Shown piece after piece: positions 1,870 through 53,758 of a DNA stretch of 64,000 nucleotides. Origin of the DNA: Aspidapion aeneum (Eukaryota > Arthropoda > Insecta > Coleoptera > Brentidae); the NCBI GenBank assembly GCA_963576565.1, contig CAUYVT010000053.1:62001-126000 (forward strand), in the 5' to 3' direction. Positions within the stretch are counted from its first letter, which is position 1; every line of letters begins with the position of its first letter. The position numbers and the translations under genes were made by a program. Below the pieces are notes generated by a model. It did no database searches. It was given only the letters and a program-made list of their open reading frames with translations, and was not told the DNA's origin.

Positions 1870-4560
1870 TTTTATGGTTTCTTGAGTTTACTTTATCTCT
1901 AATACATACACTTTTTTAATTAGTCGTCTAGCTATAATAAAAATATGTACCTATTTTTATAAAGATTTTTTTAGTTTACTTTATATCTAAGCTCAATAAA
2001 AACTTCAATTAAATAAAGATCTTCATGTTTTCTATTTTAAAGTTACATTCTAATAGATAGCAATTTTTTCTATAGTGTCGTCTATTTACGCCACTGCAAA
2101 AACTCCCCTCCGTGTGCCAATAGTTTGAAAAGGAGCGCCGATGGAAAGGGTAAAGTTGGCGTTTTTTTGATGACCTTTGATTATTCTTTTGAGAAGAACC
2201 TTAGTTAAGGGAAATGGAACGAATTTTTAAAACCAAACGAATTCAGGTTGTATTTTAACTGTCGACGGACGGGAAAAATGCATTAAAACCTTTTTTTTGG
2301 GCTAGAGTTTAAAAAGAATGCTGACTGCGGCTTTTGTATAATAGGTAAAATACGGAAAATACTATTATAGCGGGCGCTTTTAGAAATCCGAGTTTACTAC
2401 TATGACGTAAAGTCTTTGTACTTTAATATTGTTGTTCTTGCCATTGTTAGTGCCGCATAAAAGAAATAATACCTTAAGCTCAATAAAATTTTAAATAGAA
2501 GAAGCCCTTTGTCAAGGTTTTTTGTAATAATATTCAATAAAGAAAATACTATAGGTTTTTTTCATTGATTTTCCAGTGCACAGTAAGTATTTTAAATTTA
2601 ACATATAACGATATGAAATGAACGCGAGAGTTGCAAAAGATTTCGGTGAATGCTTATGATTAAATTAATAAAGAAATAACTTAATAAGTGTAACACAGAA
2701 GTACACGTACCTATGTTATTGCAAAATGTTTTTCGATTGCAAAATGTTTTTAATGTGAGCCGTATTTAGTTGATGACACTGTAAAGTACTAAAACAAAAT
2801 TTGAATAAAAAAAACATGCTAAAATAAAACTAAAACTTTTTTCCTTTCTACTTTGTCTTACCTCAGTGTAGATTATCTACACTGTGGTTTTTCTATATCA
2901 ATATGGCGAAAATGTTTCTCGTCTTACAACCACCTATATTATTTCTGTTGACCGCCGAATTATCATTCATACATATAATTATACCTACCAAATGTAAAAT
3001 CTAAAACTTTATTAAATTATATCAAATTTACGGCGGATTCAATTAGGCCCTATATCGGATCCGGATCCAATTGAACCATAAATATATCTGATAGATTTAA
3101 GAACCAAGTCGGACTGTCCTGTAACATCACTGCCTCCGTTAGTTACAAGGACGCAATAACATAGGGACTTTTACCGCCATTTAACTAACGGGAGCAGATC
3201 ATGATTGTGTCTAGATTGGCAATTAATTTAAACTGGCAAGATAAGACTGGCTCTCGTTTCTGGTAAGTAAGAAGTAGAAACGTGCACTAAAACAAGATTA
3301 CGAATAAAAACGGTTGCTTATACTGACCTTTTTTATCCTTAGTTTACTTGATACCATACCATATCATGCTAAAATGGGAAATGATATGACATATTTTTAA
3401 AACAAACTTTGATTTTGTCGGATTCAATCTTTTAGCACAATGTGCGCTTTTGGGGTTCTTTATGTAGGGACTTTCCCTTTTCTTTACTTTTAAAGAGTAT
3501 CATCATTTTAACCAATTTTGTTCATATTGTCTGGTTTTAAGTTTGTTTAATTTAATGGCAAAATATGATAATAAAAACGTTTTATGCGGCTTTTATATTA
3601 GTTTGGATACGAAAAATTAAGAATAAAATATTTCTTTAAGAGAAACAAAATGGTTAGTGTTCAAATTATTGGTGTCGACCTCATTAGCTAGTAAGATAAG
3701 TTGAACAAATTTTGATGTGAAGCGACCAATAGCTTGCTAATCCCTTCCACCAACTTTAAGCTGCACATGCAAATCGTCGGCAAACAAATAGCAAAACAAT
3801 ATTAGTAATTCTTTAATCTGATTCACTTTTCGCTTAGTTAACAAAGCAGAACATTTTTTGGGAGCTGCTAAAGTTTTGTGCCAACAAAATTACTACTGAT
3901 TAATTAATTCCTTGCCTTTTGTTGTGTTTTTGTTTTTTTTTATTGTATTTTGGTAGATAGTTGTAATGATTTTGGGCAGAAATACATAATTCTCATTTAT
4001 TCCGTCAAATCAAAGTTATAACCTTCTCCTTTACTTTCCAAGGGTGTCAAAACCACTAATCTCTATAAATATAACTGGATAGGCCTTTACATATTTGCGA
4101 AGTGAGGCAAAAATATTGATATCTTTTGTCGAGAGAGCACGCTGTGCAGGAGGTGTTTTTGAAAGTTCGCGGACGTTTTATTTTTAATTTATAACTGGAT
4201 TTTTACTGCGATTAGATACTTCTAAAGTTTTTAAAATAATTAAAGCTACTTACTTCAAAAAGGCTTTTCACTCCTATAAAATTAGTTTTTACAAGCAACG
4301 CATCGTGTTTTCATTTTTTATTTTTGTTCAACAAAAATAATTTCAAAAATATACTGACTACATTGACAAACACTTTAATGACAAATCACAAATGACAATC
4401 TCCTTGAAGTATTAAGTTCACCGAATACCACCGGAAGAACTAGAGAGAGAAAGGTTGCAATGCTTAGCATTCATTGTGTTCATGTTCTCACTCTAAAAAC
4501 TCTTTAAATTTTTGCCTCAGTGTTCCATACACGTATAGCCGAGGCCGTTCCAGTTACTTC
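1870..4560. other. AT-rich stretch without recognised genes
   Basis: No open frame above background and no recognised repeat. Visible small structures are a 10-bp-arm perfect hairpin (CAGTGTAGAT / ATCTACACTG) at 2864-2884 and scattered homopolymer runs. The segment is probably intergenic or intronic. Confidence 0.5.
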
Positions 4561-4700
4561 GTATCGCATTGGTCAAAACTGCATTGACCGTGCAGTGTTC
4601 TTAGGGGTCCCTAGAGGACAAAACAGTTAACTGTCAACTTAATAGGTGTAGATCTTGGACCCACGTGGGTACACAGCTTTCGAGCGACAGGTACTGAAAT
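4530..4700 (+). repeat. decayed copy of the hammerhead-bearing repeat
   Basis: This aligns with 13715-13860. The ribozyme remnant spans 4594-4642. Stem II (GTCC/GGAC) and a perfectly paired stem III (ACAG-TTAA-CTGT followed by C) survive, but the core reads CTTAGGG instead of CTGANGA and GAAA has become AAAA, so cleavage is not expected. The change from ACGG/CTGT in the intact copies to ACAG/CTGT here keeps stem III paired, which supports the structural reading. Confidence 0.7.
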
Positions 4701-5240
4701 TTTAGCGTTCTATTTAAGTGAAGTTATTATGCATTTTATTAAGTAAAACTATTGTAGGTTACCCAAAAAATTGTTTTCTATTTGATTACCTATAATATAA
4801 GAGGTACTACTTTTCTACGGCTGATTTCAACACCTTTTTGATTTACGCCAAATAATATACATATGTACGTATTCTGTTCATTCATTCTAGCCAGTTATTT
4901 TTTCAGTGCAATTATGACAGCTCAATAGGCAGAAGAATAACAAAAATATAAAGGAAAATATGGTTTTATAACGTAAATAAGAACATTGGATCAAAAAGGT
5001 GACAAACAATCCGGAGAAATATGGTAAGAATAAATGCACAGAAAACTAGCTTGCATCTAGTTTTCGATCCAGTAGAAAAATTATGGACAATGTTAGAACA
5101 AACTAATATCAATCATACATACATAAAAGCAATAAAAGAAGTATAAAAAGGGTAAAAATCGGAAATTAAAATTGGAAATCGACTTTCAAAAGAATTCCTG
5201 GTAACGAGAGGCTTAAGACAGGGATGTATCTCTCCAATTC

Positions 5241-13560: not shown

Positions 13561-13751
13561 GTTTTACATAAAAACTACGATCCGGTGTGAATGCTTTTTT
13601 TAGAATTTTAGAATCTTAGGTACTTTTTAGAAATTTATTTTTCAGAAAGTACAAAAATTTGGATAAAAGCATTTCCAGTTCGCTCACTAATTACATTTAA
13701 TTAGAGACAAAACCGTCTGATTAACTTCGCAAGATTTGTCACTTGACCAGC

Positions 13752-13799
13752 AGTGTTCTGAGGAGTCCCATAAGGACGAAACGGTTAACTGTCAACACT
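13752..13799 (+). ncRNA. hammerhead ribozyme 1 (type I-like, short stem III)
   Basis: Stem I is AGTGTT (13752-13757) with AACACT (13794-13799). The core CTGAGGA is at 13758-13764. Stem II is GTCC (13765-13768) with GGAC (13774-13777) around the loop CATAA. GAAA follows at 13778-13781. Stem III is ACGG with CTGT (one G.U pair) closed by TTAA. The cleavage triplet GTC ends at 13793. All core nucleotides of the consensus (CUGANGA, GAAA, NUH) are present. Predicted cleavage is after C13793, releasing a 5'-OH on A13794. Confidence 0.85.
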
Positions 13800-14263
13800 T
13801 ATTAGGTGTCCATTAGATCTTGGACCCCCGTGAGGTTAAGCTTTCAAGCTACCCACGGAAAAATATAAGGGAAACAAAAAACTCCTTTTTGCCCGATTAG
13901 CCATGAAACTTGTTTGATTTTTAAATTCACGGGTACGAAATTTCACGTTTGTTAGCATTATTTGGCTTAAAAATTCCGTTGATTGACGCTCACTGTCTTG
14001 ACGACGGGTAAAAATGCAAAATGCGTTGATCCGGCCTGAAAAGACAAAGAGCTGTCGTAGGTCACGGACTATAGTTGTTTTCTTTTATTTGCATTCGATC
14101 TTTTCATTGATCGACATTGTAGAGCAGTGTTTTTCCCTGCTTTGTTTTTTGTTTCTCTCGTATCTCGGTGGATGGCGCCTCTTGCTATAGTTCGCTCACT
14201 AATTACATTTAATTAGAGACAAAACCGTCTGATTAACTTCGCAAGATTTGTCACTTGACCAGC

Positions 14264-14311
14264 AGTGTTCTGAGGAGTCCCATAAGGACGAAACGGTTAA
14301 CTGTCAACACT
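14264..14311 (+). ncRNA. hammerhead ribozyme 2
   Basis: Identical to ribozyme 1 and offset by exactly 512 bp: core CTGAGGA at 14270-14276, stem II GTCC/GGAC at 14277-14289, GAAA at 14290-14293, GTC ending at 14305. Stem I AGTGTT (14264-14269) pairs with AACACT (14306-14311). Confidence 0.85.
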
Positions 14312-14435
14312 TATTAGGTGTCCATTAGATCTTGGACCCCCGTGAGGTTAAGCTTTCAAGCTACCCACGGAAAAATATAAGGGAAACAAAAAACTCCTTT
14401 TTGCCCGATTAGCCATGAAACTTGTTTGATTTTTA

Positions 14436-16270
14436 TATTTTTGATGAAACCTCAAAAACGGATTTTTTGTTTTTCTTAATTTTTATAAATTTTTTTCAAA
14501 GACTATTTGTTTACATGTGTGCTAAATTTTACCTTGTGATGATAATGGGATCATGGTTAAAAAAAATTATTTACATCTTGATGCATATATTTTTTGATAT
14601 TTTTATTACTATAAAAATTAATATCTAAAGTGCACATATTGTTATGAGGTATCTTATTTATGTAGCATGTATATTATGAAAACGTGGACACCATGGGCAT
14701 CTGGTTTCGCTACGTTGACATTTAAAACAAGAAACAATCAATTAAAAAACGTACTTAGATAATAACGGGCTCACAAGAATAATTGAGAACCTGTACAAAA
14801 ATGCCCCCTTTTCGCCCTTTCTCGCTGCAATGTTTGATATTGATGAAAATAGTTACATTATTTATTTCTTAAACAGTGGTTGCGTGTGGAGTAAAACTTT
14901 AGGGGTGCACACCAAAAAATTATTGCAGCCACACCCAACAGATAACGCCAAGTTGTCTCAGTGCACTAATTTAAGCTGCACCTTTCACAGCCAACGGTAG
15001 CCGGTGGGTGGCATCACGAGGGTGCAGGCGTTATCGATCGCCGCAATTGATTCACAAGAGCATGAACCGAAGTAAGGCTCAGATTCTGTGTACTGTAATA
15101 TTTTATATTTCGTAATTAGAATGCAACATAACATCAACGGTGCACAGAATTTCGATCCAGTTAAGCGCGGCGCCGGCGGTAGCTACGCATCCTCGTTTCA
15201 ACTCAAATACAAACACATACATAGGTATTAATTCTTAGTTAAAATTCAAGTCTTTGGGGAAATCCTTTTGGGGTTTATTGATACTTTATAATGAAATTAT
15301 TAATTAAAGAATGGTCAGATTTTAATATTTTTTTAAGTAAAATAATGGAGGAACCGCCACTGCTCTTAAAATAGTGGCAAAATTGGCCGTAAGGTAATTA
15401 AATATCAGAGGTGGCGTATTATTTTGACTGATGACTTTTTGTAAAAAACAAAAGTTGCGTAAACATGGCGTTTCGTAGCGTGTTTTCTCAGTCTGTTTGG
15501 CTTTGCGACATTTCTGGAAATTAATTTGATTTTACGTAGTTACCGAAATCGAAATGGTAGATTGCAAATCAAAAAAAAATTGGTTGGTATTTTCCACTTA
15601 ATTTTGCAACCCCTATGATGATCAAAATCATCCCACGAAAGTGACAAATTCCAGAAATGTGACAGAGTGGATGTGTAATCTTAACTTAGGCGTCGAAGTA
15701 AGTAAAAATGATTAAAAACTATTGAAATAGTATAATTCCAGTCACGGCTAATTTATAGGTAAAATATTAAAGTAGAGGAATTGTCAAATAGATTAGATTT
15801 AAGGTAAGATAAAAGAATTTTGAACAACATCAATTTACAAAAATAAATTTTTAAATAGGAACCCACTGTCATCCCATGATAAAACTTGGTCTACATGTAA
15901 ATAAATAGTCTAGAAAACAAATATAAAAAAATTGAACAAAATAAAAAATCCGTTTTTAAACTGCATCAAAAACAAATTTTGTGGTGAGACCTCTGCATTT
16001 TTTTTACAAGAAGGATGCCACTAGGCATACCATAATTAAGCTTGTAGCCCTATAAGATTACACAGCAACTTTTACCTCGATATGCCCATGAATAACAAGG
16101 GTTTAAATAAATCAAGTCAGTGCAAAAAAGACGATATTAAGCATTAAAAAAAATTAATAACTTAAAAACTAGACTGAATGAAATTTTGCATTTTTACTTC
16201 TTTCTACTTAGTAAAGAATTTGACCAAGAATTATGAAAATCAAAAGTGCCAAGGTCCAAACCATTGGTTG
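14436..16270. other. unassigned stretch
   Basis: No supported gene. A local GC-rich island at about 14940-15190, with CpG-containing motifs (GCGCGGCGCCGGCGG), stands out from the AT-rich surroundings but has no open frame. The rest is AT-rich. Confidence 0.35.
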
Positions 16271-31270: not shown

Positions 31271-32462
31271 ATGGAAGATCTAACTAAAATGATGCAGGCT
31301 CTAGCAGCTCAAATGGCTCAAAACAAGAACGATATAAGACAGACCATTGAACAAAACCAGAACGACATGAAGCAGACCATGGAACAAAACCAGAACGACA
31401 TGCAGGAAAACTCAATCAAATAAAGAGCAACTCCGAACAGCTGAGAGAAGAGTTTAAGACTGCAACCGAAGATCTTAACGAAGAAATAACTTAAAGAATG
31501 CATAGTGTGGAACAAAAGGTACAAAATAAATTGCAGAATGTAGAAGAAAAGGTACAAAATGTTGAAGAAAAGGTACAGAATGTTAGGGAAGAAGTTTTTC
31601 AGACCATGGAAGAAATATTCCAGGACGTGTCAAAACAGCTTATACAGCTCCAAAAAGAACACATCAAAATAAAAGCTCAGGGATGTGTTGTGAATTCCAA
31701 CCAAAACATTAAGCCTCCAAATTTCGAAGAAACGTCTTCCTGGTCCACCTACAAACAACAATTTGAAGCTGCCGCCGCTGAAAATGGTTGGGACGAGGAC
31801 GAAAAGCTAGAGCTTTGTTAGTAGCTCTACGAGAACCTGCTCTTGGACTTTTACGGTCTATTACAGCGGAACAAAAACCGAGTTACAATGCTTTAGTGGC
31901 AGCTTTAGAAAGAAGATATGGAGATGAACATTTACGAAATTTGTATTGGTCAGAATTAAATATTCGTCAACAAAGAGCAGGAGAGTCATTACAAGAGTAT
32001 GAAACGGATATCAGGAGGCTGATGTACTTGGCTTACCCAGAAATGCCAGAAAATTACAGAGATCCCTTCACGGTAGATCGCTTTATTAACGGCTTGCGAG
32101 ACACGGACTTAGCAAAGTTACTTCGTCGAGAACGCTTCCATAACAGTAGTGAAGTGTTGCTTCGAGCCCTTGAAATTGAATCATCAAATAATATGTCCAG
32201 GCCAAAAGTGAGAGCTGTGTCAATTCAGGAGAGAGAAGAAATGAGCACTGGGGATGAGGTCAACTTAAAAACGCTAAACCAACTGTTTCAATCACTGATA
32301 GAGAAGATTGATTCTTTAAAAGAAAGCAGACGATCCCCTCCAAATGTAAAGTGTTTCAGATGCGGACGTACAGGGCATATTCAACGCGATTGTCGTGTCC
32401 AAATGAGGTCTCGCTCACCATCTAGTGGGACAAAGTACCGAAGAAGAGATCAGGAAAACTAA
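31271..32462 (+). pseudogene. Gypsy-1 gag, broken
   Basis: It starts at ATG 31271 after the leader. The first 50 codons contain a repeated EQNQNDMKQTM block and end at TAA 31421; the frame continues shifted from about 31405, hits TAA 31492, and resumes at 31498. Heptad repeats (NVEEKVQNVEEKV) predict a coiled coil. After a second shift near 31803, the capsid-type region follows (LVALREPALGLL ... FTVDRFINGLRD). A CCHC zinc knuckle, CFRCGRTGHIQRDC, and a basic tail end the protein at 32462. Role: the structural particle protein that binds the element RNA. Breaks: two stops and at least two indels. Confidence 0.9.
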
Positions 32463-32485
32463 AACTAGTCAACGCAGAGGGGCGG

Positions 32486-32920
32486 GTGTTGGCTAATGGG
32501 AATTTAGCCCCCAAAATTTACTCTATCAAGAGCTTAAAACATACTGCTGACAGTCTTAACATCGACGGACTTATTAATGGAAGAAAAGTTAATATAACAG
32601 TAGACACTGGTGCTGCCATATCATTGCTTAAGTTTAAAATTGCAACGAGATATAAAATTCGACCAACAGAAAAGAAAATAACACTTAAGACTGTGACTAG
32701 AGAATCTGCCCACGTGTTGGGGCAGACAGACATAGACCTGCAGCTGGGAAGAATGAAGATTCGCCACACGGTATTGGTTGCCGAAATAGAAGACGAATTT
32801 ATTTTGGAAATGGACTTGATAAGTAAACATGGATTTGCTTTTGATAATAAACTTAATACCCTAAGATTTGGGAATGAAGAGTTCATTTTGTCAAATAGTC
32901 ACTTCAATAAAAACCAATAA
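32486..32920 (+). pseudogene. Gypsy-1 protease region
   Basis: Frame of about 144 codons containing ITVDTGAAISLL, the aspartic protease active-site motif, followed by the expected LGQTDIDLQLG and VLVAEIEDEFILEMDL segments that complete a retropepsin. It would mature the Gag-Pol polyprotein. It ends at TAA 32918. The following segment is in another frame, so the polyprotein is interrupted here. Confidence 0.85.
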
Positions 32921-32922
32921 AG

Positions 32923-33240
32923 GTGGTGGCAGTATGCACATTAAGACTGGTCGGTAACAGTGAGACCATAATTTTTGGGAGGCTAGAAAGTAAAACATCA
33001 AGCTGCGTCGGACTCATAAGCCAACAGAATGCACCCAACACCTACCTCGTTGCAAAGTCACTAGTTAAAACCGATAAAGACATCCCGATTAGAGTCGCCA
33101 ATATTTTCCCAAATAGTGTCAAAATTAATAAGGGTGAGGTGTTAGCATTATTTGAACCAGTACAGAAAGTAACAAGATGTGAGGAGCCAACTTCTGAGGA
33201 TAAAAGCAAGTTACCAATGGAGGTACTTCAGCAATTTTAG
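32923..33240 (+). pseudogene. Gypsy-1 protease-RT linker
   Basis: About 105 codons with GLISQQNAPNTYLVAKSLV and IPIRVANIFPNSVKINKG, the usual region between protease and RT of gypsy elements. It begins in a new frame relative to the protease and ends with TAG at 33238. Confidence 0.75.
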
Positions 33241-34069
33241 TGAACTTGGCAACATCTCACTCCAGAAGAATTTAGTAAAGCGAGAAAGTTTATAGAAGAG
33301 CAAAGTAGTATCTTCGAAACTAAGAGTAGTTCGGGACGCACAAACCTTATTCAACATTCCACCAACACTGGCGATGCCAACTGATAAGACAGCCCCCAAG
33401 AAGACTACCAATGGCCAAACAAGAAGAAGTTCACAATCTCAATAATAAAATGCTCAGTGACGGGGTTATTGAAGAGTCATCAAGTCCTTGGTCATCTCCT
33501 GTGGTGTTGGTCACTAAAAAGGATGAAAGTACTAGATTTTGCGTCGACTACAGAAAACTTAACGATGTGACCAAGAAAGATAGTTACCCACTGCCAAGAA
33601 TAGACGACACATTAACAATATTGGCAGGATCATGTTGGTTTTCTAGTCCTGACCTAAAAAGTGAATTTTGGCAAGTAGGAATCTTTGAAAAGGATAAGGA
33701 GAAGACTGCATTCTCTACTGGAAGTGGACTTTATTAGTTTAATGTGATACCATTTGGCCTATGCAATGCTCCGGCTACATTTGAAAGACTAATGGAAGTC
33801 GTTCTACGAGGCCTTACTTGGAAAACCTGCCTAGTCTATTTGGATGATGTCATAGTAATGGGGAAATCATTTCAAGATCATCTAGACAATTTACGAGAAG
33901 TATTTTCAAGAATCGGGAACGCAAATCTTAAATTAAACTAAAAGAAATGTTTTCTATTACAAGAAAAAGTTGAGTTCCTGGGTCACGTCGTTTCCCGAGA
34001 AGGCATCCATACCGACGAAAAGAAGTTGCAATCAATAAAAGAATGGCCTCAACCTCGTGACAAACATGA
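33241..34069 (+). pseudogene. Gypsy-1 reverse transcriptase, interrupted
   Basis: The RT fingers and palm are recognisable: DGVIEESSSPWSSPVVLV, FCVDYRKLNDVT, SYPLPRIDDTL, then IPFGLCNAPATFERLM and the catalytic LVYLDDVIV (YLDD). The motif A region reads SSPDLKSEFW. A TAG at 33735 and a TAA at 33939 interrupt an otherwise single frame. After FLGHVVSREGIHTD the frame runs to PRDKHE and stops; the conserved FLGLC.YYRRF connection is missing, so about 100 bp appears deleted at about 34068. Confidence 0.88.
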
Positions 34070-34440
34070 ATGAATGAAGCATTTAAAAGACTAAAAGCAG
34101 CATTATGTTCTAGTCCGATTCTCGCATATCCTATTCCGAAAGGTAAATTTATATTAGATACTGATGCGCGCAACGATGGTATAGGAGCAGTACTCTCCCA
34201 AGTACAAGATGGAGAAGAACGGGTCATCGAATTTTTCAGCAAAAAGCTATCCAAACCAGAGAGAAATTATTGTATTACCAGAAAGGAGCTCCTAGCCATC
34301 ATTAAATCCGTAGATCACTTTCACAAATATCTCTATGGACAAGAGTTTCTGATTAGAACGGATCATGCTGCGTTACAGTGGCTCATGAAAATAGAAAAGC
34401 TACAACAATACCATTATTAAATTAAGCACCGAGCGGGAAG
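34070..34440 (+). pseudogene. Gypsy-1 RNase H
   Basis: It resumes after the deletion with AFKRLKAALCSSPILAYP. The RNase H acidic residues are visible in LDTDARNDGIGAVL, TRKELLAI and LIRTDHAALQWL. The frame stops at TAA 34418 and continues in the same frame as HRAGRVHNNADALSR, the standard RNase H end. Role: removes the RNA strand during cDNA synthesis. Confidence 0.85.
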
Positions 34441-35872
34441 GGTGCATAATAATGCAGATGCATTGTCCAGAAGACCTTGCCCTGAAGATTGTAAACATTG
34501 CAGGAGAATTGACCAGAAAGAAGGAATTACTTACGTGCGTCAAATAAAGTTAGAACCAGATGAAGAATGGATGTCGGCTTCGATTAGAACCACACAACTT
34601 GACGACAAAGATGTAGGACCTATCTTGCGATTGAAAGAAGAGAACAAGCCACGACCATCATGGCAAAATATCGCAAACCAAGGGATGATATTCAAATCAC
34701 TGTGGGCGCAATGGGATTCACTGATATTGGAAGAAAACATACTTAAACGTGCCTGGGAAAGTGCCGATAGCCTTACTGTGATTAATCAAGTAGTAGTTCC
34801 TAGGAGCATGGTAGACCATATAATGGCCGAATGCCATGGTGGAAAATCAGGCGCGCACCTAGGCATAAATAAAACTATGGATAAAATTCGAAACTGATTT
34901 TATTGGGTCAATTACTTTCAAGATGTGAAAAACTGGTGCCGCCGATGTTCGACTTGCGCAGCCAGCCAAGGTCCCAAAACAAGGTCCAGAAGTCAAATGA
35001 AACAATATAACGTAGGTCTGCCATTTGAACGCTATGCTATTGACGTGGCCGGACCATTTCCAGAAACTAAAAAGGGCAACAAATACATCCTTGTTGTCAT
35101 GGATTACTTTAGTAAATGGCCAGAAGTTTTTGCTTTGCCTAACCAAGAGGCCACTACAGTTGCAGAAGTTCTGGTAAATGATGTTTTCAGCAGATTTGGC
35201 ATTCCTTTGGAACTACATTCAGATCAAGGGAGGAACTTTGAATTTCCAGAATCTCTGTGACCTTTTAGGAATACATAAAACACTGCTTTACATCCGTAGT
35301 CAGATGGTATGGTTGAAAGATTTAACAAAACAATAGAAGAACATCTTTGCAAAGTTGTTGATGAGCACCAAACAGATTGGGACCAATATATTCCATTGTT
35401 TTTGATGGCCTACAGAACCGCCGTACACAATACGACAGGAGCTACTCCATCTAGTATACTGTTTGGTAGAGAACTGCGTTTACCATGTGATATTATCTTT
35501 GGTTCACCTGAAGAAGAACGCTTAGAGGTTAATGATTATGTCGAACGTTTAAGGCAAAAGCTGCACGATATCCATGAGGTGGTTAGAGAGCGAATAGAAA
35601 TAGTTAGTGACCGGATGAAAGCGAGATATGACCTGAAAGCAAACTCTTCAGGGTTCAAAGAGAATGATCAAGTCTGGCTATACAATCCTCAACGCAAGAA
35701 AGGAAGATCACCTAAGTTGACACCACCATGGGAAGGACCTTATAAAGTTGTTAAGAGAATTAATGATGTAGTCTACCGAATCCAGAGAAGCCCGAAGTCC
35801 AAGATGAAAGTTGTTCATCTAGACAGACTAAAACCTTACCTGGGAAATGTTGATCGAGACGATCAAACCTGA
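34441..35872 (+). pseudogene. Gypsy-1 integrase
   Basis: The HHCC zinc-binding region shows HGGKSGAHLGINKT and WCRRCSTCAAS, split by a TGA at 34895. The catalytic core follows with AIDVAGPFP (first Asp), ELHSDQGRNFE (second Asp) and MVERFNKTIEEHL (Glu). Between the last two there are stops at 35258, 35276 and 35297 and a small loss. The C-terminal domain holds PPWEGPYKVVKR, the GPY/F module, and ends at TGA 35870. All of these pieces stay in one frame, so the decay is mainly by point mutation. Confidence 0.88.
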
Positions 35873-38079: not shown

Positions 38080-38560
38080 AAATTTAATTTTCAAACAAGT
38101 TTTCGTGGAAATGTGGGTAAAAATAAGGGTTTTTGTTTCTCTTGTATTTTTCCGTGGTCACGTGATGGATTCTCTCTTTCAATCGATATTTTCATCGATC
38201 GATGATATAGCAGTTTTACTCGCATGCTGTTATTTTAGTTTCTCTCGTAGTTCGGTGGCTGGCACTTCTTGCAGAGTACATGATTCTGCGTTCTGAAGAG
38301 TCTCGAACGAACGTGTTAACTGTCACTACTTATTAGGTGTTCATTAGATCTTGGACCCCTGTGAGATTAAGCCTGCGAGATACTCATGTAAAAATACGAG
38401 AGAAACAAAAAAGCTTTATTTTTTTTACGGTTATGCGCACTCGCAAGAAGATCCTTACCACGCTCGAGAAGCGGCAAACCCGCTTAGCTACGAAAACTTT
38501 TTTCATTTTTAATTTACGGGTACTAAATTTTACGTATTTTTTTTTTGCCATTAAAAATGC
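38080..38560 (+). repeat. hammerhead-repeat copy 3, ribozyme degenerate
   Basis: This aligns with the unique interior and the right part of the 512-bp unit at 13677-14435 (GCATTCGATC.TTTCATTGATCGA-like block, TTTCTCTCGTA, CGGTGGCTGGC, TTATTAGGTGT.CATTAGATC). At 38293 the core CTGAAGA is present and GTC survives, but stem II and GAAA are broken. This gives an independent, older insertion of the same family. Confidence 0.7.
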
Positions 38561-41364: not shown

Positions 41365-42780
41365 GTAAAACGTCGTTTTTAACAGCTAAGTTGCCAAAGT
41401 CAAAGCTGGTAAAAGCAATTTAAATTATTATTGTTATAAAGCTAAGTTGCCGAAGCCAAAGCGGGAAACAATAAATTTTAATTTACAGTTAATAAATTAA
41501 AATAAATCAAACAATTTAACTAACAAATTCCGAACAGGTAAAATGAATCGTGAATACAAGAAATCCCATCCCTTTTTTACGTTTGTCTGTTTGATTCATT
41601 TTGTTTTATGAATTCTTTTAAAACAGTGATTTATTCAAAAGCACTATTTTTAGAAGCCAAGTTGCCGGAGCCAAAGCTGGTAAAAACAGTGTGCATTATT
41701 GTTGTTATAAAGCTAAGTTACAGAAGCCAAAGCGGGAAACAACAAATTTTAATTAACAGTTAATAAATTAAAATAAATCAAACAATTTAACTAACAAACT
41801 CAGAACAGGTAAAATAAATCGTGAATACAAGAAGTCCCCTTTTTTTACGTTTGTCTGTTGGATTCATTTGGTTTTATGAATTTTTTAAAACAGTGATTTA
41901 TTCAAAAGGACTATTTTTAGAAGCCAAGTTGCCGGAGCCAAAGCTGGTAAAAACAGTGTGCATTATTGTTGTTATAAAGCTAAGTTACAGAAGCCAAAGC
42001 GGGAAACAACAAATTTTAATTAACAGTTAATAAATTAAAATAAATCAAACAATTTAACTAACAAATTCAGAACAGGTAAAATGAATCGTAAATACAAGAA
42101 ATCCCTTTTTTACGTTTGTCTGTTTGATTCATTTTGTTTTATGAATTCTGTTAAAACCGTGATTTATTCAAAAGGACTATTTTTAGAAGCCAAGTTGCCG
42201 GAGCCAAAGCTGGTAAAAACAGTGTGCATTATTGTTGTTATAAAGGTAAGTTGCAGAAGTCAAAGCGGGAAACAACCAATTTTAATTAACAGTTAATAAA
42301 TTAAAATAAATCAAACAATTTAACTAACAAATTCAGAACAGGTAAAATGAATCGTAAATACAAGAAATCCCTTTTTTTTACGTTTGTCTGTGTGATTCAT
42401 TTTGTTTTATGAATTTTTTTAAAACAGTGAATTATTCAAAAGGACTATTTTTAGAAGCCAAGTTGCCGGAGCCAAAGCTGGTAAAAACAGTGTGCATTAT
42501 TGTTGTTATAAAGCTAAGTTACAGAAGCCAAAGCGGGAAACAACAAATTTTAATTAACAGTTAATAAATTAAAATAAATCAAACAATTTAACTAACAAAT
42601 TCAGAACAGGTAAAATGAATCGTAAATACAAGAAATCCCTTTTTTTTACGTTTGTCTGTTGGATTCATTTTGTTTTATGAATTTTTTAAAACAGTGATTT
42701 ATTTAAAAGCACTATTTTTAGAAGCCAAGTTGCCGGAGCCAAAGCTAATAAAAACAGTGTGCATTATTGTTGTTATAAAA
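41365..42780 (-). repeat. 266-bp tandem array in the 3' LTR (five full units)
   Basis: Units are spaced about 266-271 bp apart, each opening with ACAGGTAAAATGAATCG and containing TTTACGTTTGTCTGT, TTAGAAGCCAAGTTGCCGG and GTGTGCATTATTGTTG. Partial units lie at both edges. The ~70-residue frames that start at each MNRKYKK are repeat translations, not genes. Confidence 0.92.
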
Positions 42781-42871
42781 TTAATTTATCATTTTGAAAA
42801 GCAGTAAATTAAATAAAGCAACTAGAGCAATAGTTCTTAAAATAAAATAAAAAAATATAATACGGACTGGT

Positions 42872-44543: not shown

Positions 44544-45050
44544 TTAATTTTTCTGGATATTTATGAAGATTTTTCGGCCATCTGCAGCGGTAAACAATCT
44601 TCTAAATCTCCCCTTTCTACATATTGGACGGTAGTTCTTGAGTTTCGTTTTGAACTCGTTCGTCCAGTCTTGCTTGGGAACCGAGAGTGCAATCTCTGCG
44701 ATTTGTTGCTCTTCATTCGGGACTAATGTCTCAGAGTTTAAAGCGGGAACTTCTAAATACGGTTCAAAAAACTCTGCTACCGATGACGGACCAGCTGACT
44801 CCTGTGACTGATTGTCGTCAACGGTCGATAAAGAAGCGGATGCCTCTGCAGCAGATTCAACTTGCGGTTTGGGTGTAGCCTGTGCGCCTTGCATCGGCGG
44901 AGGAGTTTGTAACCCTTCTCGGTTTTCTCTTTCAATTGCGGCGGTGATTTTCGTTAAAAGGTCATCTATCCCATCAATAAAAACCGGGGAGACGGGACGA
45001 TCTTCAGGGTCTTCTCTAATATCTGGGGTAGGGGTAGGTCTTTTTATCAC
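44544..45050 (-). CDS. Gypsy-2 accessory ORF M, 168 aa, unknown
   Basis: An intact frame lying between integrase and ORF Z. The N-terminus is proline/aspartate-rich (PTPDIREDPEDRPVSPVF), followed by an amphipathic stretch (LLTKITAAIERENREG), then an Ala/Ser/Gln-rich middle. The basic C-terminus includes DWTNEFKTKLKNYRP and RFRRLFTAADGRKIF. No signal peptide or membrane segment is seen, so it does not look like an envelope. I do not recognise a family. Confidence 0.6.
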   Translation of the reverse strand: MIKRPTPTPDIREDPEDRPVSPVFIDGIDDLLTKITAAIERENREGLQTPPPMQGAQATPKPQVESAAEASASLSTVDDNQSQESAGPSSVAEFFEPYLEVPALNSETLVPNEEQQIAEIALSVPKQDWTNEFKTKLKNYRPICRKGRFRRLFTAADGRKIFINIQKN

Positions 45051-45201
45051 ATCTACAGGTATATTGGAAATGATGTTAATTAATAATGTTAAACTTTATT
45101 GCTGTTGGATGCTACTGCTGTACCTACTTCTGATGATACCGCGTTGTTATTGGGATCTATACGTGCTTCTGAATCAACAGTAATTTTTATAGGGATAATT
45201 T

Positions 45202-45513
45202 TTATCGCCAAGTTGGTCCCCTTTTCCAATATAACATAATTTTATAATATAATATAATTTTCATGGTAACTGGATCGGGATAAAAGAGTTCACCCTTTTT
45301 AGGTTTGGAGGGTTTATCTCTGCCACTTGAAGAATTACCAGCTCCTGGATCTTTCTTGAGCTTACTATTGATCGCTTCTGCGGCTTGCTTAGCTAGAGCG
45401 GTCTTCTTCTTCTCCAATTCTTGCTTATTTTTGGCAGCTGTCTTCATGGAAATTGAGAATTGGCTGACCATGTCGGCGGGTATTTTGGAGACGGAGATTG
45501 ACTTTCTGGGCAT
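45202..45513 (-). CDS. Gypsy-2 accessory ORF K, 103 aa, lysine-rich
   Basis: Starts 46 bp after the pol stop. The first 60 residues are highly charged (KNKQELEKKKTALAKQ) and predict a coiled coil. A Gly/Ser/Lys/Pro stretch (SSSGRDKPSKPKKGELFYP) follows. The last 20 residues are Ile/Tyr-rich and may be read-through of a lost frame. Possible nucleic-acid or Gag partner; function unknown. Confidence 0.5.
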   Translation of the reverse strand: MPRKSISVSKIPADMVSQFSISMKTAAKNKQELEKKKTALAKQAAEAINSKLKKDPGAGNSSSGRDKPSKPKKGELFYPDPVTMKIILYYKIMLYWKRGPTWR

Positions 45514-45558
45514 AGCTAAATATAATAAACAGAAAGCCTATCAATAATTATATTTAGG

Positions 45559-46719
45559 TTAGTTAAGGTGCGCTGGCTTAAGGTCTTTTATATGAATTCT
45601 TTTTATCCGTTTACCGCAGTTGTCTTTTAGATCATAAACTACCGGAGAATGAACCTTGCAGATAGTATATGGGCTGGAAAACTTCGGTGCTAACTTTGCT
45701 GCAAATCCTTTAACGGCGGAAGAAAGAACATGATTCTTTTTGTAAACTTTATCTCCCATATGACATAACCAATCACGCCTACGGAGATTATAATAGTGAC
45801 TTTGTGTAGAAAAAGCTCTAGCTAAATTTATTCTAACTAATTCATAAGTTTCTCTCAGTCGGTTCATTCGGTCTACATGTTCTTGATCAAGTGATTTACT
45901 GGTTTCACCTTCAGGCGATCTCTCGGACTCTTCTCGGTAAAGTGCGTTTGGAGTATCTGGTTCCCTTCCGAAATTCAGAAAAGCCGGAGAAAAACCGGTA
46001 GAATCTTGTCTTGAAGTATTAATCGCAAATGTCAAGTCTGGAAGATTTTGATCCCATTCGCGATGATCCTGTTCGCACATTTGGGCAATCATAGTTTTAT
46101 ATGTCCTGTTGGTTCTCTCCACCGGATTATCCTGCGGTGTATAAGTCGGGGTGAAGCGTTGGGAAATTCCGTATTCCTTTAGCAACTCTCTGAAAGGCTT
46201 GCCTGTATACTGCGTGCCGTTGTCAGAAAGTACAACGGTTGGACAACCAAAACGAGCGATTATCAGTTCATGGAGTGCATCGGCAACGGCTTTTGAAGTA
46301 GCTTTGCGAATTGGGCGGGCTTCTACCCATTTGGTGAAGCGGTCTAAGAACATGACTATGTAGTTGTTTCCTTTTTTAGAACGTGGCAGAGGACCTATCA
46401 GGTCTGTCGAGACGGTTTTCCATGGCTCTCGGTTTGCCGAAGGTCGCATTTTCCCAGCTGGTTGTTGTTGTGATACTTTATAGCGTTGACAGGACTGACA
46501 ACATCTCACATAATGTGCTATATCTTTTAGCATTCCTGGCCAGTAATATCGGCGAGCTATTCTAACTGCAGTCTTAGCTATTCCCATGTGACCGGCTGTC
46601 GGTAAGTCATGGTTTTCCTCTAAAACACGAGATCGGGCGGCTTTCGGAACACAGAGTTTCCACGGATCGGACATCTCAGGTTCAGTGAGATCTGACATAT
46701 CCCAAAAATGTCGGTGCAA
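45559..46719 (-). CDS. Gypsy-2 integrase (386-codon pol segment)
   Basis: The zinc domain shows HDLPTAGHMGIAKT and CCQSCQRYK. The core has VSTDLIGPLP (Asp), VVLSDNGTQYTG (Asp) and PQDNPVERTNRTYKT (Glu), so all DDE residues are present. The C-terminal SH3-like/GPY-type region includes KFSSPYTICKV and ends IKDLKPAHLN. It catalyses strand transfer of element cDNA into the genome. It is the continuation of pol but lies in a different frame from the RT/RNase H segment because of a change in a T7 run at about 46820. Confidence 0.9.
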   Translation of the reverse strand: MHRHFWDMSDLTEPEMSDPWKLCVPKAARSRVLEENHDLPTAGHMGIAKTAVRIARRYYWPGMLKDIAHYVRCCQSCQRYKVSQQQPAGKMRPSANREPWKTVSTDLIGPLPRSKKGNNYIVMFLDRFTKWVEARPIRKATSKAVADALHELIIARFGCPTVVLSDNGTQYTGKPFRELLKEYGISQRFTPTYTPQDNPVERTNRTYKTMIAQMCEQDHREWDQNLPDLTFAINTSRQDSTGFSPAFLNFGREPDTPNALYREESERSPEGETSKSLDQEHVDRMNRLRETYELVRINLARAFSTQSHYYNLRRRDWLCHMGDKVYKKNHVLSSAVKGFAAKLAPKFSSPYTICKVHSPVVYDLKDNCGKRIKRIHIKDLKPAHLN

Positions 46720-46766
46720 ACGACCATTTATTAAACAATAATCTGGGAATTGTTTTGGGTTAGCTT

Positions 46767-47765
46767 CTATCTCTCGGACTTTCTTGGAATACCATGGGCA
46801 TGCAGTTTCGAACTCAATAAAAAAATTGGGTCAGCTTCTGGTTCTTCTCCATCAGGCAACGGATCTCTGGAGAGAGTATCTGCTATACGGTTTAAAACAC
46901 CATTCCGATATCGTATTTTAAAACTAAATTGCTGCAGAAACATTCTCCATCTTGCTAAGCGTCCAGAGGGGCTGTCAATGTGGTCTAACCATTTTAAGCT
47001 CTGATGATCGGTTTCAACGGTAAATTCATACAATTCCACATATGGTCTCATTTTCTGAATTCCCCAAACTATAGCAGCGCATTCCTTTTCAGTTGCGGAC
47101 ATTTTCTTTTCTGTAGGAGTCAAAGATCGGCTGGCGTAGGCTACAACGTGGTCTCCATCAGCGTAATGTTGAATCAAGGCGGCACCAAGACCCATATCGG
47201 AGGCGTCAGTTTGCATAACAAACGGACGGGCGAAATCAGGGCAACTTAATACCGGTGCCTCAGTCAGACATTTCTTGAGATGGTCAAAAGCATGCTGTTG
47301 GTCCTCTGTCCACTCAAAACGCTGTCCTTTTCTTAAAAGACGATTAAGTGGCTCTGCAATTTGTGAAAACCTGGATACAAATCGTCTGTACCAACTACAT
47401 ACTCCTAGAAATCTTCTAAGTTCTTTGAGAGTTGTCGGCGGTGGAATTTGTGAAATAGCTTCAACCTTATCAGGATCAGTGGTAATTCCTTCTGGTGTAA
47501 CCATGTGTCCCAAATATTTTAAAGATCGGCGAGCAAACATGCATTTCTCGGGATTTAACTTAAGATTTGCCCTACGTAGACGGCGGAAAACTTCTCTAAG
47601 ATTTTGTAAATGTTCTTCGAAACTCTCTCCCAGGATAATTATGTCATCTAGGTAGGCAAAAGCTATATCCTCCATTTCTGGGCCAATGACATCATCCATT
47701 AATCTTTGGAACGTAGCGGGAGCAGCGTGAAGTCCAAATGGCATCACTAAATTGATACAGCCCAC
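46767..47765 (-). pseudogene. Gypsy-2 RT palm/thumb and RNase H segment
   Basis: Begins at the RT motif VMPFGLHAAPATFQRLM with catalytic FAYLDDIIIL, followed by the thumb (RFLGVCSWYRRFVSRFS) and RNase H (MQTDASDMGLGAAL, ATEKECAAIVWG, VETDHQSLKWLD). It ends after ADTLSRDPLPDG in a frame terminated by the T-run shift. It is open for 332 codons; one single-base frameshift at about 47752 separates it from the preceding RT half. Confidence 0.9.
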
Positions 47766-48717
47766 GGCCTGGAACCGTAAAAGCGGTTATCTCTTTACTA
47801 GGTTTAGACAGCGGTATCTGCCAATAACCATGCCTGAGATCAAGTGAAGATATATATTTAGCACGTCTAAGTTTATCTAGAATGGAATTTATAAATGGTA
47901 GTGGATATGCATCTTTTTTGGATATAGAGTTAATTTTTTGGAAATCTATGCAAAAACGAAATTTTCCGTCTTTCTTTTTCACTATAACCACTGGAGAACT
48001 CCATGGGCTCTTTGATGGTTCGATAACTCCATCTCTTAGCATTTTATCCACTTCTTCGTCTATTATAGCTTGCATTTTTGGATTTTGTGGGCGATAGCGT
48101 TGCTTTATTGGCTCGGGGCTTAAAAGTTTAATTTCATGTTCTACTAAATCTGTGGTTCCTTGAACAGAGTCGAATAAGGGTAATTCTCGATCTAAAAATT
48201 CTTGTAGTCGGATTTCTTCGCTATCGGTTAATGTTAGTGGCGGACAGATGTTTTCGGTTTCTATGCTATTAACATAGTCTGCTTGGTTCTCTTGAAGACA
48301 GTTTCCTCTCAAAAATATTGAGTTATCCTCCAAGTCCAATTGTATTCTTTCGGAACGAAGAAAATCCAACCCGAGTACTAAGTCTTCTGATAGTCCAGGT
48401 AGATGAGCCACAGTAATTTTTGTTTGGTGATCTGCGATGCTCATTTCCAAGTTAAACTCTTCTCCTATTTCTGCGAAAGAGCCATTTGCTAGGCGAGCAG
48501 CGAACAAAGATTTTTGACATTTCGAAACTGTGGTTTGTCGACAGCTCTCGGCAAGGCGGTCTCCACAATATGAACGTCCGGCTCCGGTATCCAGGAGAGC
48601 TCGGTAAGTCTGATTCCTCCATAAAACGTTTAAATAAGGTCGGCAGTCGGAAATCTCATACATTTCGTAGTAGTCAGAGGCAGTGATAGCAAGATGCTGT
48701 GGTAGCCTCAGTTCCAT
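47753..48717 (-). pseudogene. Gypsy-2 protease and RT N-terminal half
   Basis: From ATG 48717, which overlaps the gag stop by 10 nt in the -1 frame relative to gag. The protease motif is ALLDTGAGRSYC, with LVLGLDFL as its second half. The RT part has DGVIEPSKSPWSSPVVIV, FRFCIDFQKIN, DAYPLPFINSILDKL and SSLDLRHGYWQIPL (motif A Asp). The frame leaves register at about 47752 after GRGLYQF. The -1 overlap with gag suggests frameshifting or reinitiation as the expression route. Confidence 0.9.
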
Positions 48718-50492
48718 CCAGCATCGTTCGAGTTTTCCGATCTACAACTGCAGTCCCTTGACAAAATACCTTGTCTGCCACATCTTGAACAGAACAGTCT
48801 CGGCGTAGAAGTACATTGGTTTCTGGTATGGCCAGTTTGTCCACATCGCCAGCAAACATTTTGACGGTTGTATGCTGGACCGTCACTTGATTCCCCTCTA
48901 TTAGTGGGTATTTGACGGCTGCCACTTGGTTGTTGGCGAGTGTCAGGGCGGTTCGCAGATTGGCTATTAGAATGTCTGTAATTGTTGCTCGCTGGTCTAG
49001 AACTTGCTATTGGTCTCACAATTGTTTGGTTTAGTTCGGTGCGGAGCAACTCAAACTCTCTGACTGCTCGAGTAAATGATATTATGTCTTGAAAATCTCC
49101 TCTTTTGATATTCTGTTGGTACTCTGGCAACAAGTTTCGATACAACCAGACCAATTCTTGATTTATCTTATAGCCTCCATGTCGACGAAGAAGGGTATGA
49201 AGATCCGTGACATATTTTGAAACTGACTCAGCTGGTCTTTGAGCTCTTTTAGCTATCTCAGCTTCCAAATCAGCAAGATAGTTTACTGGGAAATAGTGGG
49301 CTCGAAAATCTTCCAGGAATTGATTCCAGGAATGCCATGAGTATCTATTGTTTCTACACCAGTGTTCGGCTTCCCCTCGGAGCAGCTGTGGCATCTGGTT
49401 TACCACACCATCTAAACTGAGTCCAAATGAGCTACATGCTTCTTCTACTTTCTCGATAAATGACACAGGATCACTGTTTCCATCAAAGGTAATTTTCCAG
49501 TTTGACAAATTGGTATAACTGGCTGGATGGAACGACTGAATTGGAAAGGGGCTTGAAACCAATTGATGCTGATTTACTGCTGTTTGTGTTAAGAGCGGAT
49601 CGGAGTGTAAGTTATCTATCGGAGCGGTGGTAGTGAGATTTGGCGGAGGAATAGCGGTAATTGAACGGTAAGGTAGCTGCACTGAGCTGTTTTTAGTTGG
49701 CTGGTAAGGTAACGGCGGTTGATTTATATATATAGCCTGGTTTGATGAAAGATTAGTTGGGATTGTCAAGGAGTCGCCACAACTAGTTGGCAAACTTGAA
49801 GCTGTAGTCGGCATATACGGTATGTGCAATAAACAGCTGTTTGCTGGATAATAATATGATGGCGGTTGACTCATATAAACAGGCTGGCTTGAAGAAAGAA
49901 GATGCGGCGCGGCGGAGTCAGTAGTAGTTTAAAAGGTAGACGTTGCCATGCGCGGCTGGGTAAGCACCTGAGTATTGTATACTGGAGCTGAATTTGGCAT
50001 GGAAGTTATGGTCGGAGGATGACTTTGATTAGGAAGATTAGTGGAGAGAACAGTTTTGTTTGATTGAACGAAATTAAATGCTGTCGGGGGGTCGGATACT
50101 GATGGGTATATTGCAGGTGAAGCTAGAAGTTGAAGAGCAGGGGCAGCGGTACTAAAAGTGGCGGTTACTGGTCTGGACTGGTTTTGTAACGTTACAGTGC
50201 TGGTTACAGGTACGGACTGGTTATATACAAATGCAGGTATTGTCGGGCTATGTACAAATACGGTACTGGTAACAGGTACTGGCTGGTGCTGGAAAAGTTT
50301 ACTGGTATCCTGCTTCTCTTCCACTTTTGATTCAGACTGGTCTTTATTAGGATGCATCTCTGATCCTTTCAGGCTAATGGTTTGTGGATTTGGCGAGGTT
50401 CTGCCTTCTTTCAGGTGATTTACCAGTCGTTGACGTTTTTTGGACATGTTTCCATCATTCGGCAACCCAAGTTTTTCTAGCCATTTGTCCAT
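48708..50492 (-). pseudogene. Gypsy-2 gag with one internal stop
   Basis: 594 codons from ATG 50492 to 48708 in one frame, with a single TAA at 49929-49931. The N-terminus (KWLEKLGLP...KKRQRLVNHLKEG) resembles a SAP-type helix pair. A long Pro/Thr/Ser/Gln-rich linker follows. The capsid region is WKITFDGNSDPVSFIEKV ... FRAHYFPVNYLADLE ... VTDLHTLLRRH. Two knuckles end the protein: CWRCGQTGHTRNQC (complete CCHC) and CSRCGRQGILSRDC, in which the His position is Ile. Role: particle protein. The internal stop could be read through or be the only lesion. Confidence 0.88.
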
Positions 50493-53670: not shown

Positions 53671-53758
53671 ATTTATCTTTTTGAAAAGCAGTAAATTAAA
53701 TAAAGCAACTAGAGCAATAGTTCTTAAAATAAAAAAATAAAAAATAATACGGACTGGT

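What the first reader, a model, noticed from the sequence alone, without database searches (positions are those of the whole stretch)
13677..14435. Two intact-looking hammerhead ribozymes exactly 512 bp apart inside 247-bp direct repeats: a probable insect retrozyme
Seen: each copy has AGTGTT, CTGAGGA, GTCC-CATAA-GGAC, GAAA, ACGG-TTAA-CTGT, C, AACACT, i.e. all three stems, every consensus core base and a GTC cleavage site. The repeats look identical. Known: hammerheads with very short stem III occur in Penelope-like elements and in metazoan retrozymes, where dimeric arrangement yields circular RNA. Inferred: a transcript across this locus would release a 512-nt RNA able to circularise. No protein is encoded.
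Basis: partly seen in the sequence, partly recalled or inferred. Interest (0 to 1): 0.93.

Follow-up and report, generated by a model that had tools for sequence, protein, structure and literature searches.

The report
Ribozyme element inserted Penelope-style
Two self-cutting RNA motifs in this stretch belong to a small jumping element whose genomic copies look as if an RNA circle was copied round and round from both sides of a cut in the DNA, in the way Penelope elements insert, which bears on the open question of how such elements move.

Summary
In detail: two complete type I hammerhead ribozymes (HHRs), 512 bp apart, in identical repeats. The element is a metazoan-type retrozyme, probably in an earwig (PMC11829193). 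A search of the 1.29-Gb host genome gave 161 matches, a lower bound; the 150 listed fall in 40 loci. The window copy is a deletion remnant of an insertion seen whole at an allelic or duplicated locus.

In those 17, one outer end lies near circle position 240 and the other near 274. This is the published Penelope signature (PMC3846280, PMC11167929); the two Penelope-like copies here with both ends read show a short and a long end too.

Laps of a locus are star-like copies of one template (110 singleton, 7 shared variants). Best reading: rolling-circle reverse transcription of one ribozyme-made RNA circle, primed at both target ends by Penelope machinery. RNA cleavage, circles and the partner enzyme are inferred; no Penelope copy sharing the element's sequence was found.

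The parts
13677..14432 (+). Retrozyme remnant, about 1.48 laps of a 512-nt unit (circle position 1 = 13677)
   Evidence: Repeat map; genome copies; comparison with locus L010, which has the same flanks and a whole bidirectional insertion
13677..13920 (+). Direct repeat, first copy (match runs on to 13927 because flank and target word resemble the element)
14189..14432 (+). Direct repeat, second copy
13752..13799 (+). Type I hammerhead ribozyme, copy 1; predicted cut 13793/13794
   Evidence: 24.7 bits; chance; energy of the fold, outer helix I
14264..14311 (+). Type I hammerhead ribozyme, copy 2; predicted cut 14305/14306
13800..13864 (+). Conserved block just 3' of the ribozyme (98% in the 447-nt subfamily while other parts are 50-84%)
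   Evidence: also the best conserved part in the 38-kb copy
13912..13916 (+). GTTTG at circle 236-240: the short outer end of insertions falls here (median 240)
   Evidence: also second lap 14424-14428
13947..13951 (+). GTTTG at circle 271-275: the long outer end of insertions falls here (median 274)
14433..14445 (+). Target-duplication word TTATATTTTTGAT on the right; its left partner is present at L010 and lost in the window
38092..38164 (-). 38-kb relative, inverted left arm ending in ...ACTTGTTTG (short end)
38169..38540 (+). 38-kb relative, right arm with broken ribozyme, ending near the long-end position
4524..4709 (+). 4-kb relative, fragment with broken ribozyme core

Best explanation
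It is a non-autonomous retrozyme. Inferred: transcripts across an array are cut by the hammerheads into 512-nt pieces that are ligated into circles. Shown by genomic anatomy, mechanism inferred: one such circle serves as template at a new site; a Penelope-like protein cuts AT-rich DNA, leaving an 11-15 bp duplication, and starts reverse transcription inside the RNA from both target ends, at circle ~240 on one side and ~274 on the other. Synthesis runs round the circle for up to about 12 laps on each side, stops anywhere, and the two 5' ends are joined, giving a head-to-head array. The window holds part of the plus arm of one such array after a deletion removed the minus arm.
For: (1) Ribozyme kept: 128 of 153 copies with intact core and all pairs; HHR 98% and the adjacent block 98% conserved in a 447-nt subfamily whose other parts are 50-84%. 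(2) Head-to-head arrays: of 40 loci in the 150 listed rows, 17 show both strands, all 17 in the order minus then plus; among ten loci taken by score only (L019-L028), 7 are bidirectional, three of them with a second arm of only 46-69 nt. (3) Target duplications of 11 bp or more at 17 of 23 loci against 2 of 506 mismatched flank pairs (narrower windows: 13 of 20 against 0 of 380). (4) All 17 loci with such a duplication have one short end (238-249, median 240, in the 15 refined ones) and one long end (271-276, median 274); if ends were independent and even this has odds 0.5^17 = 7.6e-6. (5) Laps of one locus differ by 0.67% within an arm and 0.63% between arms, against 1.73% between loci; at 11 loci with at least 4 laps, 110 variants are singletons and 7 shared, and 0 of 5000 simulated coalescent genealogies reach 110: all laps, in both arms, descend star-like from one template. 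(6) Arms pass the cut site many times without a scar, and 0 of 38 inner ends lie within 15 nt of it (2.3 expected), so linear cut monomers were not the template. (7) Penelope-like elements are present: L050 has one 627-aa frame with RVT_1 and GIY-YIG. Copies L049 (12-bp duplication, one end 37 nt longer) and L058 (one end about 40 nt longer) are head-to-head with one short and one long end. (8) The same anatomy is published for Penelope: inverted pLTR, 8-10 bp duplication, 31-bp tail at one of the inverted pLTRs (PMC3846280, passages); two adjacent internal start sites and priming on both strands (PMC11167929, half the text).
Against: No RNA data: cleavage, circles and expression are untested. 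ViennaRNA prefers other folds with flanks and the Rfam score is under the gathering cut-off. No Penelope-like copy fetched shares sequence with the element's start-site region; L035 only has an array beside a Penelope fragment. L025 is bidirectional but has two short-type ends and no clear duplication; L028 is bidirectional with a damaged left end, no duplication and 2.4% lap divergence; L021, L024, L027 and L060 are one-directional without a duplication. L061 could not be scored (fetched stretch cut the array). Ten of the first loci (L009-L018) and L052, L053 were picked because both strands showed in the listing. Of 117 minor alleles 33 also occur in other loci, so some inheritance from a multimeric source or recurrent mutation is not excluded.
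Confidence: 0.74

Rival explanations
1. Retrozyme moved by Penelope-type machinery, but from a long linear multimeric transcript of an existing homogeneous array rather than from a circle.
For: Arrays are transcribable units; 33 of 117 within-locus minor alleles are seen in other loci.
Against: An active ribozyme would cut such a transcript at every lap; L018 has about 12.8 laps in one arm; within-locus variation is almost wholly singleton; both arms share one template.
Confidence: 0.14
2. Moved by a LINE by twin priming (5' inversion) and not by a Penelope-like element.
For: LINE reverse transcriptase ORFs lie in the window; twin priming also gives an inverted 5' part (recalled).
Against: In LINE twin priming one end is internal, not a fixed start site (recalled); here both outer ends are fixed start sites about 34 nt apart with no poly-A, as in Penelope (PMC3846280, PMC11167929) and in L049 and L058.
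Confidence: 0.06
3. Head-to-head arrays made by snap-back self-priming, the explanation favoured for Penelope palindromes in PMC3846280.
For: It explains palindromes and identical sequence in the two arms.
Against: It should give two equal outer ends; here all 17 scored loci have two different ones, and arm lengths differ freely.
Confidence: 0.04
4. Satellite DNA grown by unequal exchange, like pDo500 of cave crickets, with the ribozyme a passenger.
For: Tandem units near 500 bp with a type I HHR in an insect (PMC2837043).
Against: Dispersed short arrays with target duplications, fixed outer ends and star-like laps.
Confidence: 0.02

Closest known systems
Metazoan non-LTR retrozymes (Cervera and de la Pena 2020, PMC7229834)
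   Same: Type I HHR, tandem units from about dimers up, low GC (circle 40.2%), no ORF, duplications longer than 4 bp.
   Different: Unit 512 nt (a relative 447) against about 170-400 nt expressed and 150-450 bp repeats reported; head-to-head arrays with fixed start sites, not mentioned in the parts of that paper read here (abstract, passages, sections 14 and 17).
Penelope-like elements: A. vaga Penelope (PMC3846280) and Anolis PAc (PMC11167929)
   Same: Head-to-head copies, short target duplications, optional tail of about 31-40 bp at one end, AT-rich targets, HHR upstream of the start sites.
   Different: No reverse transcriptase or endonuclease frame; fuller HHR with 4-bp stem III; the copied RNA is a circle read for many laps.
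pDo500 satellite of Dolichopoda cave crickets (PMC2837043)
   Same: About 500-bp unit in an insect, type I HHR of 49 bp, G-U pair in stem III.
   Different: pDo500 is a satellite making about 5% of one genome (as stated there); here short dispersed insertions.
Plant LTR retrozymes (PMC4918200; listing and the account in PMC7229834 only)
   Same: Ribozyme-made circle proposed as retrotransposition intermediate.
   Different: Those have type III HHRs, LTRs, primer-binding site and 4-bp duplications; none seen here.

Membership tests
Metazoan non-LTR retrozyme | Type I hammerhead with intact core | tested here: met
   128 of 153 copies intact
Metazoan non-LTR retrozyme | Short tandem repeats, dispersed in many copies, GC below about 45-50% | tested here: met
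Metazoan non-LTR retrozyme | No coding capacity, duplications longer than 4 bp | tested here: met
   Longest ATG ORF 58 aa; 11-15 bp at 17 of 23 loci. Absence of a primer-binding site was not searched for
Metazoan non-LTR retrozyme | Reported unit size about 150-450 bp (a description, not a definition) | tested here: not met
   512 nt; a relative has 447 nt
Metazoan non-LTR retrozyme | Contacts between loops of helix I and II | tested here: inconclusive
   An outer helix I beyond an internal loop can form; contacts not modelled
Metazoan non-LTR retrozyme | Expressed as linear and circular RNA | not testable with these tools
   No RNA data at hand
Penelope-like element | ORF with RT and GIY-YIG endonuclease | tested here: not met
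   No such frame in the element; so it is not a Penelope-like element
Penelope-like element | Head-to-head copies, target duplication, tail at one end | tested here: met
   same in L049 and L058 (duplication readable in L049 only)
pDo500-type satellite DNA | Satellite arrays spread by exchange | tested here: not met
   Dispersed insertions with duplications and star-like laps

The most novel reading that the evidence does not exclude
Each array records one event in which a single ribozyme-made RNA circle was reverse-transcribed, rolling-circle fashion, by Penelope machinery acting in trans on both ends of one target cut, starting at two different fixed sites. This would be direct genomic evidence both that the circle is the retrotransposition template of animal retrozymes and that Penelope-like elements move them, and it would explain the one-tail, head-to-head anatomy of Penelope itself by two separate target-primed starts instead of self-priming.
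Probability: 0.58. Interest if true: 0.9.

Novelty: new variant of a known kind. Interest (0 to 1): 0.78.

Why it matters
Which enzyme moves animal retrozymes is open: PMC7761336 (passages) says their repeats show no conserved motif from which the autonomous partner could be deduced, and PMC7229834 (discussion) names Penelope-like elements as a strong candidate from shared HHRs, tandem copies and co-occurrence. The insertion anatomy here gives a sequence-level reason to choose Penelope, names the two start sites, and turns the circle model into something that can be tested with one purified protein and one RNA. It also bears on how Penelope elements come to be head-to-head with one tail.

Tried and rejected
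Whole-window Rfam at gathering scores: 0 matches. Element pattern in viral contigs and genome contigs: 0 matches each. A target duplication around the window copy itself: none, explained by the deletion against L010. Rfam gathering scan of 11 Penelope loci: 0; my hammerhead script found none in L029-L051 but the retrozymes in L035. The Penelope hammerheads I mention were then read by eye in the printed 3' regions and carry an extra A in two families, so they are weak calls. Similarity of the element to fetched Penelope copies: L035 (an array beside a Penelope fragment) only. PLE motif script on the window: no GIY-YIG motif. Hairpin at the start sites: no stronger than shuffles. Host name: protein search gave no organism names; telomere repeat used instead. 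The genome-wide count of intact ribozymes by pattern did not complete.

That head-to-head retrozyme arrays are not in print rests on searches of the held open library only: (0 papers with hammerhead ribozyme, head-to-head and retrotranspos); subscription papers and two asked-for papers were not held.

Full report
Observation. The two hammerheads are present as described. The direct repeats are 251 nt and identical, 512 apart. Rfam Hammerhead_1 matches both with 24.7 bits (E 0.0022 in a 1.1-kb scan), under the gathering score of 34. By hand scaling (my arithmetic) that E-value becomes about 0.13 for the whole window against all families. A looser structural pattern gave only these two sites in the window and 1 hit in 100 random windows. 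The stems are AGUGUU/AACACU, GUCC/GGAC and ACGG/CUGU with a UUAA loop; an outer helix I (CACUUGA/UUAGGUG) can form beyond an internal loop. With flanks, the minimum-energy fold is another one by 3-5 kcal/mol.

Relatives in the window. Local searches found two diverged relatives: 80% identity around 38290-38412 and 78% around 4584-4688. Both have broken ribozymes. The 38-kb one has an inverted left arm followed by a plus arm.

The genome. After several unanswered tries, the window's own genome could be searched: 1,286,157,303 bases in 149 contigs; 161 matches, with 861 candidates of which 40 were scored, so a lower bound. The 150 listed rows fall in 40 loci; 17 show both strands, and in all 17 the minus rows come before the plus rows. 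I fetched 24 of these loci outside the window copy: L009-L018, L052 and L053 because both strands showed in the listing; L019-L028 by score; L060 and L061 because one strand showed. Mapping on the 512-nt circle: L009-L018 bidirectional by choice; L019-L028 7 of 10, three of the seven with a second arm of only 46-69 nt; L061 bidirectional, L060 not. L018 has the longest arm, about 12.8 laps.

The window copy. Its flanks match L010 (C1, 59.2 Mb) at 98.1% on the left and 99.4% on the right. L010 holds a bidirectional insertion with a 13-bp duplication. The window lacks L010 2037-3512, that is 426 bp of flank and the whole minus arm, and has 65 nt more of the plus arm. It is thus a deletion form of the same insertion; whether allele or duplicate I cannot tell.

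Ends. Shared words of 11 bp or more at the two sides occur at 17 of 23 loci against 2 of 506 mismatched pairs (a narrower test gave 13 of 20 against 0 of 380). The 16 words tabulated are 85.6% A+T against 65.7% for the window. With the duplication used to fix the boundary, 15 loci have a short end at circle 238-249 (median 240) and a long end at 271-276 (median 274), one of each at every locus. L052 and L053 agree (275 and 240; 241 and 278). L052 is inserted into an older copy of the element, so its target can be read: circle 390-400 is duplicated. Both end positions lie at a GTTTG (circle 236-240 and 271-275). Not fitting or not scorable: L025 (two short-type ends, no duplication), L028 (left end damaged, no duplication), L021, L024, L027, L060 (one direction, no duplication), L061 (cut by the stretch). 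Inner ends are scattered; 0 of 38 lie within 15 nt of the ribozyme cut (2.3 expected; not significant alone). The 38-kb window copy shows the same mixed ends by eye.

Template. From 97 laps of 20 loci and the window, divergence is 0.67% within an arm (179 pairs), 0.63% between arms of a locus (110 pairs) and 1.73% between loci (4367 pairs). L028 is the exception at 2.4%. At the 11 loci with four or more laps there are 36 locus-fixed differences, 110 singletons and 7 variants in two or more laps; 33 of the 117 minor alleles also occur in other loci. A coalescent expects 55 singletons, and 0 of 5000 simulated sets reach 110. Growth by duplication or unequal exchange should leave nested shared variants; end-to-end jumping between different linear monomers should give between-locus divergence inside arrays and scars at the cut site. 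One circular template fits best.

Constraint. Of 153 hammerheads in 23 loci and the window, 128 have an intact core and all pairs, 121 of them identical; 8 have a broken core, 5 are partial, 12 lost one or more pairs. In L017 an older relative with a 447-nt unit keeps 98% of the hammerhead and 98% of the next 65 nt, against 84%, 50% and 73% in three other parts. The single hammerhead change turns a G-U pair of stem III into A-U. The kept module runs from the ribozyme to the start sites.

Penelope-like elements here. GIY-YIG gives 91 matches in the genome (150 of 633 candidates scored). L050 has RVT_1 and GIY-YIG in one 627-aa frame; L049 and L048 show GIY-YIG, L046 and L041 RVT_1. L049 is head-to-head (2-kb arms at 97.5%), with a 12-bp duplication, a short right end and a left end 37 nt longer. 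L058 is head-to-head with one end about 40 nt longer, in a TA repeat that hides any duplication. In a third group, copies end at one of two places about 40 nt apart (read by eye). Short hammerhead-like motifs stand 60 nt (L049) before the short end; in the retrozyme that distance is 123 nt. No fetched Penelope copy shares sequence with the element except where an array lies beside one (L035).

Literature. PMC3846280 (passages): the typical Penelope insert has an inverted pLTR, a 9-bp duplication and a 31-bp tail at one of the inverted pLTRs, most often head-to-head; self-priming was favoured. PMC11167929 (parts 1 and 2 of 4): the Anolis protein cuts and extends both strands and starts at two adjacent internal sites that correspond to the tail; its HHR was not needed for insertion in vitro. 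PMC7229834 (abstract, passages, sections 14 and 17) and PMC7761336 (passages) propose Penelope as partner on co-occurrence and the circle as template. PMC2837043 (parts 1 and 2 of 5, and passages) describes pDo500. PMC11722881 (passages) repeats the partner question as open.

Host. Three large contigs begin with (CCGAA)n; the far end of C1 does not. PMC11829193 (passages) reports TTCGG/CCGAA in earwigs. So an earwig is likely, not proven.

Verdict. Shown: ribozyme sequence and its conservation, copy structure, duplications, two end classes, star-like laps. Inferred: cleavage, circle, Penelope protein as the agent. It works like a Penelope-mobilised rolling-circle retrozyme; by sequence it is a retrozyme, not a Penelope-like element.

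Noticed in passing
window 41376-42788 and 51732-53675: Two tandem arrays of a 266-268 bp unit (5.2 and 7.2 copies) that are about 95-97% alike, inside a longer duplicated stretch.
   Followed up: no
window 44544-50492 and 31788-35872: ORFs that look like gypsy-type LTR retrotransposons (gag, protease, RT, integrase pieces), by reading the translations; not searched against families.
   Followed up: no
window 58657-60282: 541-aa LINE-like reverse transcriptase ORF with close relatives (up to 70% identity) in environmental collections without names.
   Followed up: partly
L035 (G000:C10, near 59.52 Mb): A retrozyme array of about three laps ends (long end) directly beside a Penelope GIY-YIG fragment.
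   Followed up: partly
L017 326-941: An older retrozyme relative with a 447-nt unit lies 1.3 kb from a young array.
   Followed up: yes
L052 980-3229: A young retrozyme array inserted into an older copy of the same element, so that the target can be read.
   Followed up: yes
L054, L056, L057: Telomeric (CCGAA)n arrays at the starts of contigs C1, C2 and C3, pointing to an earwig.
   Followed up: yes
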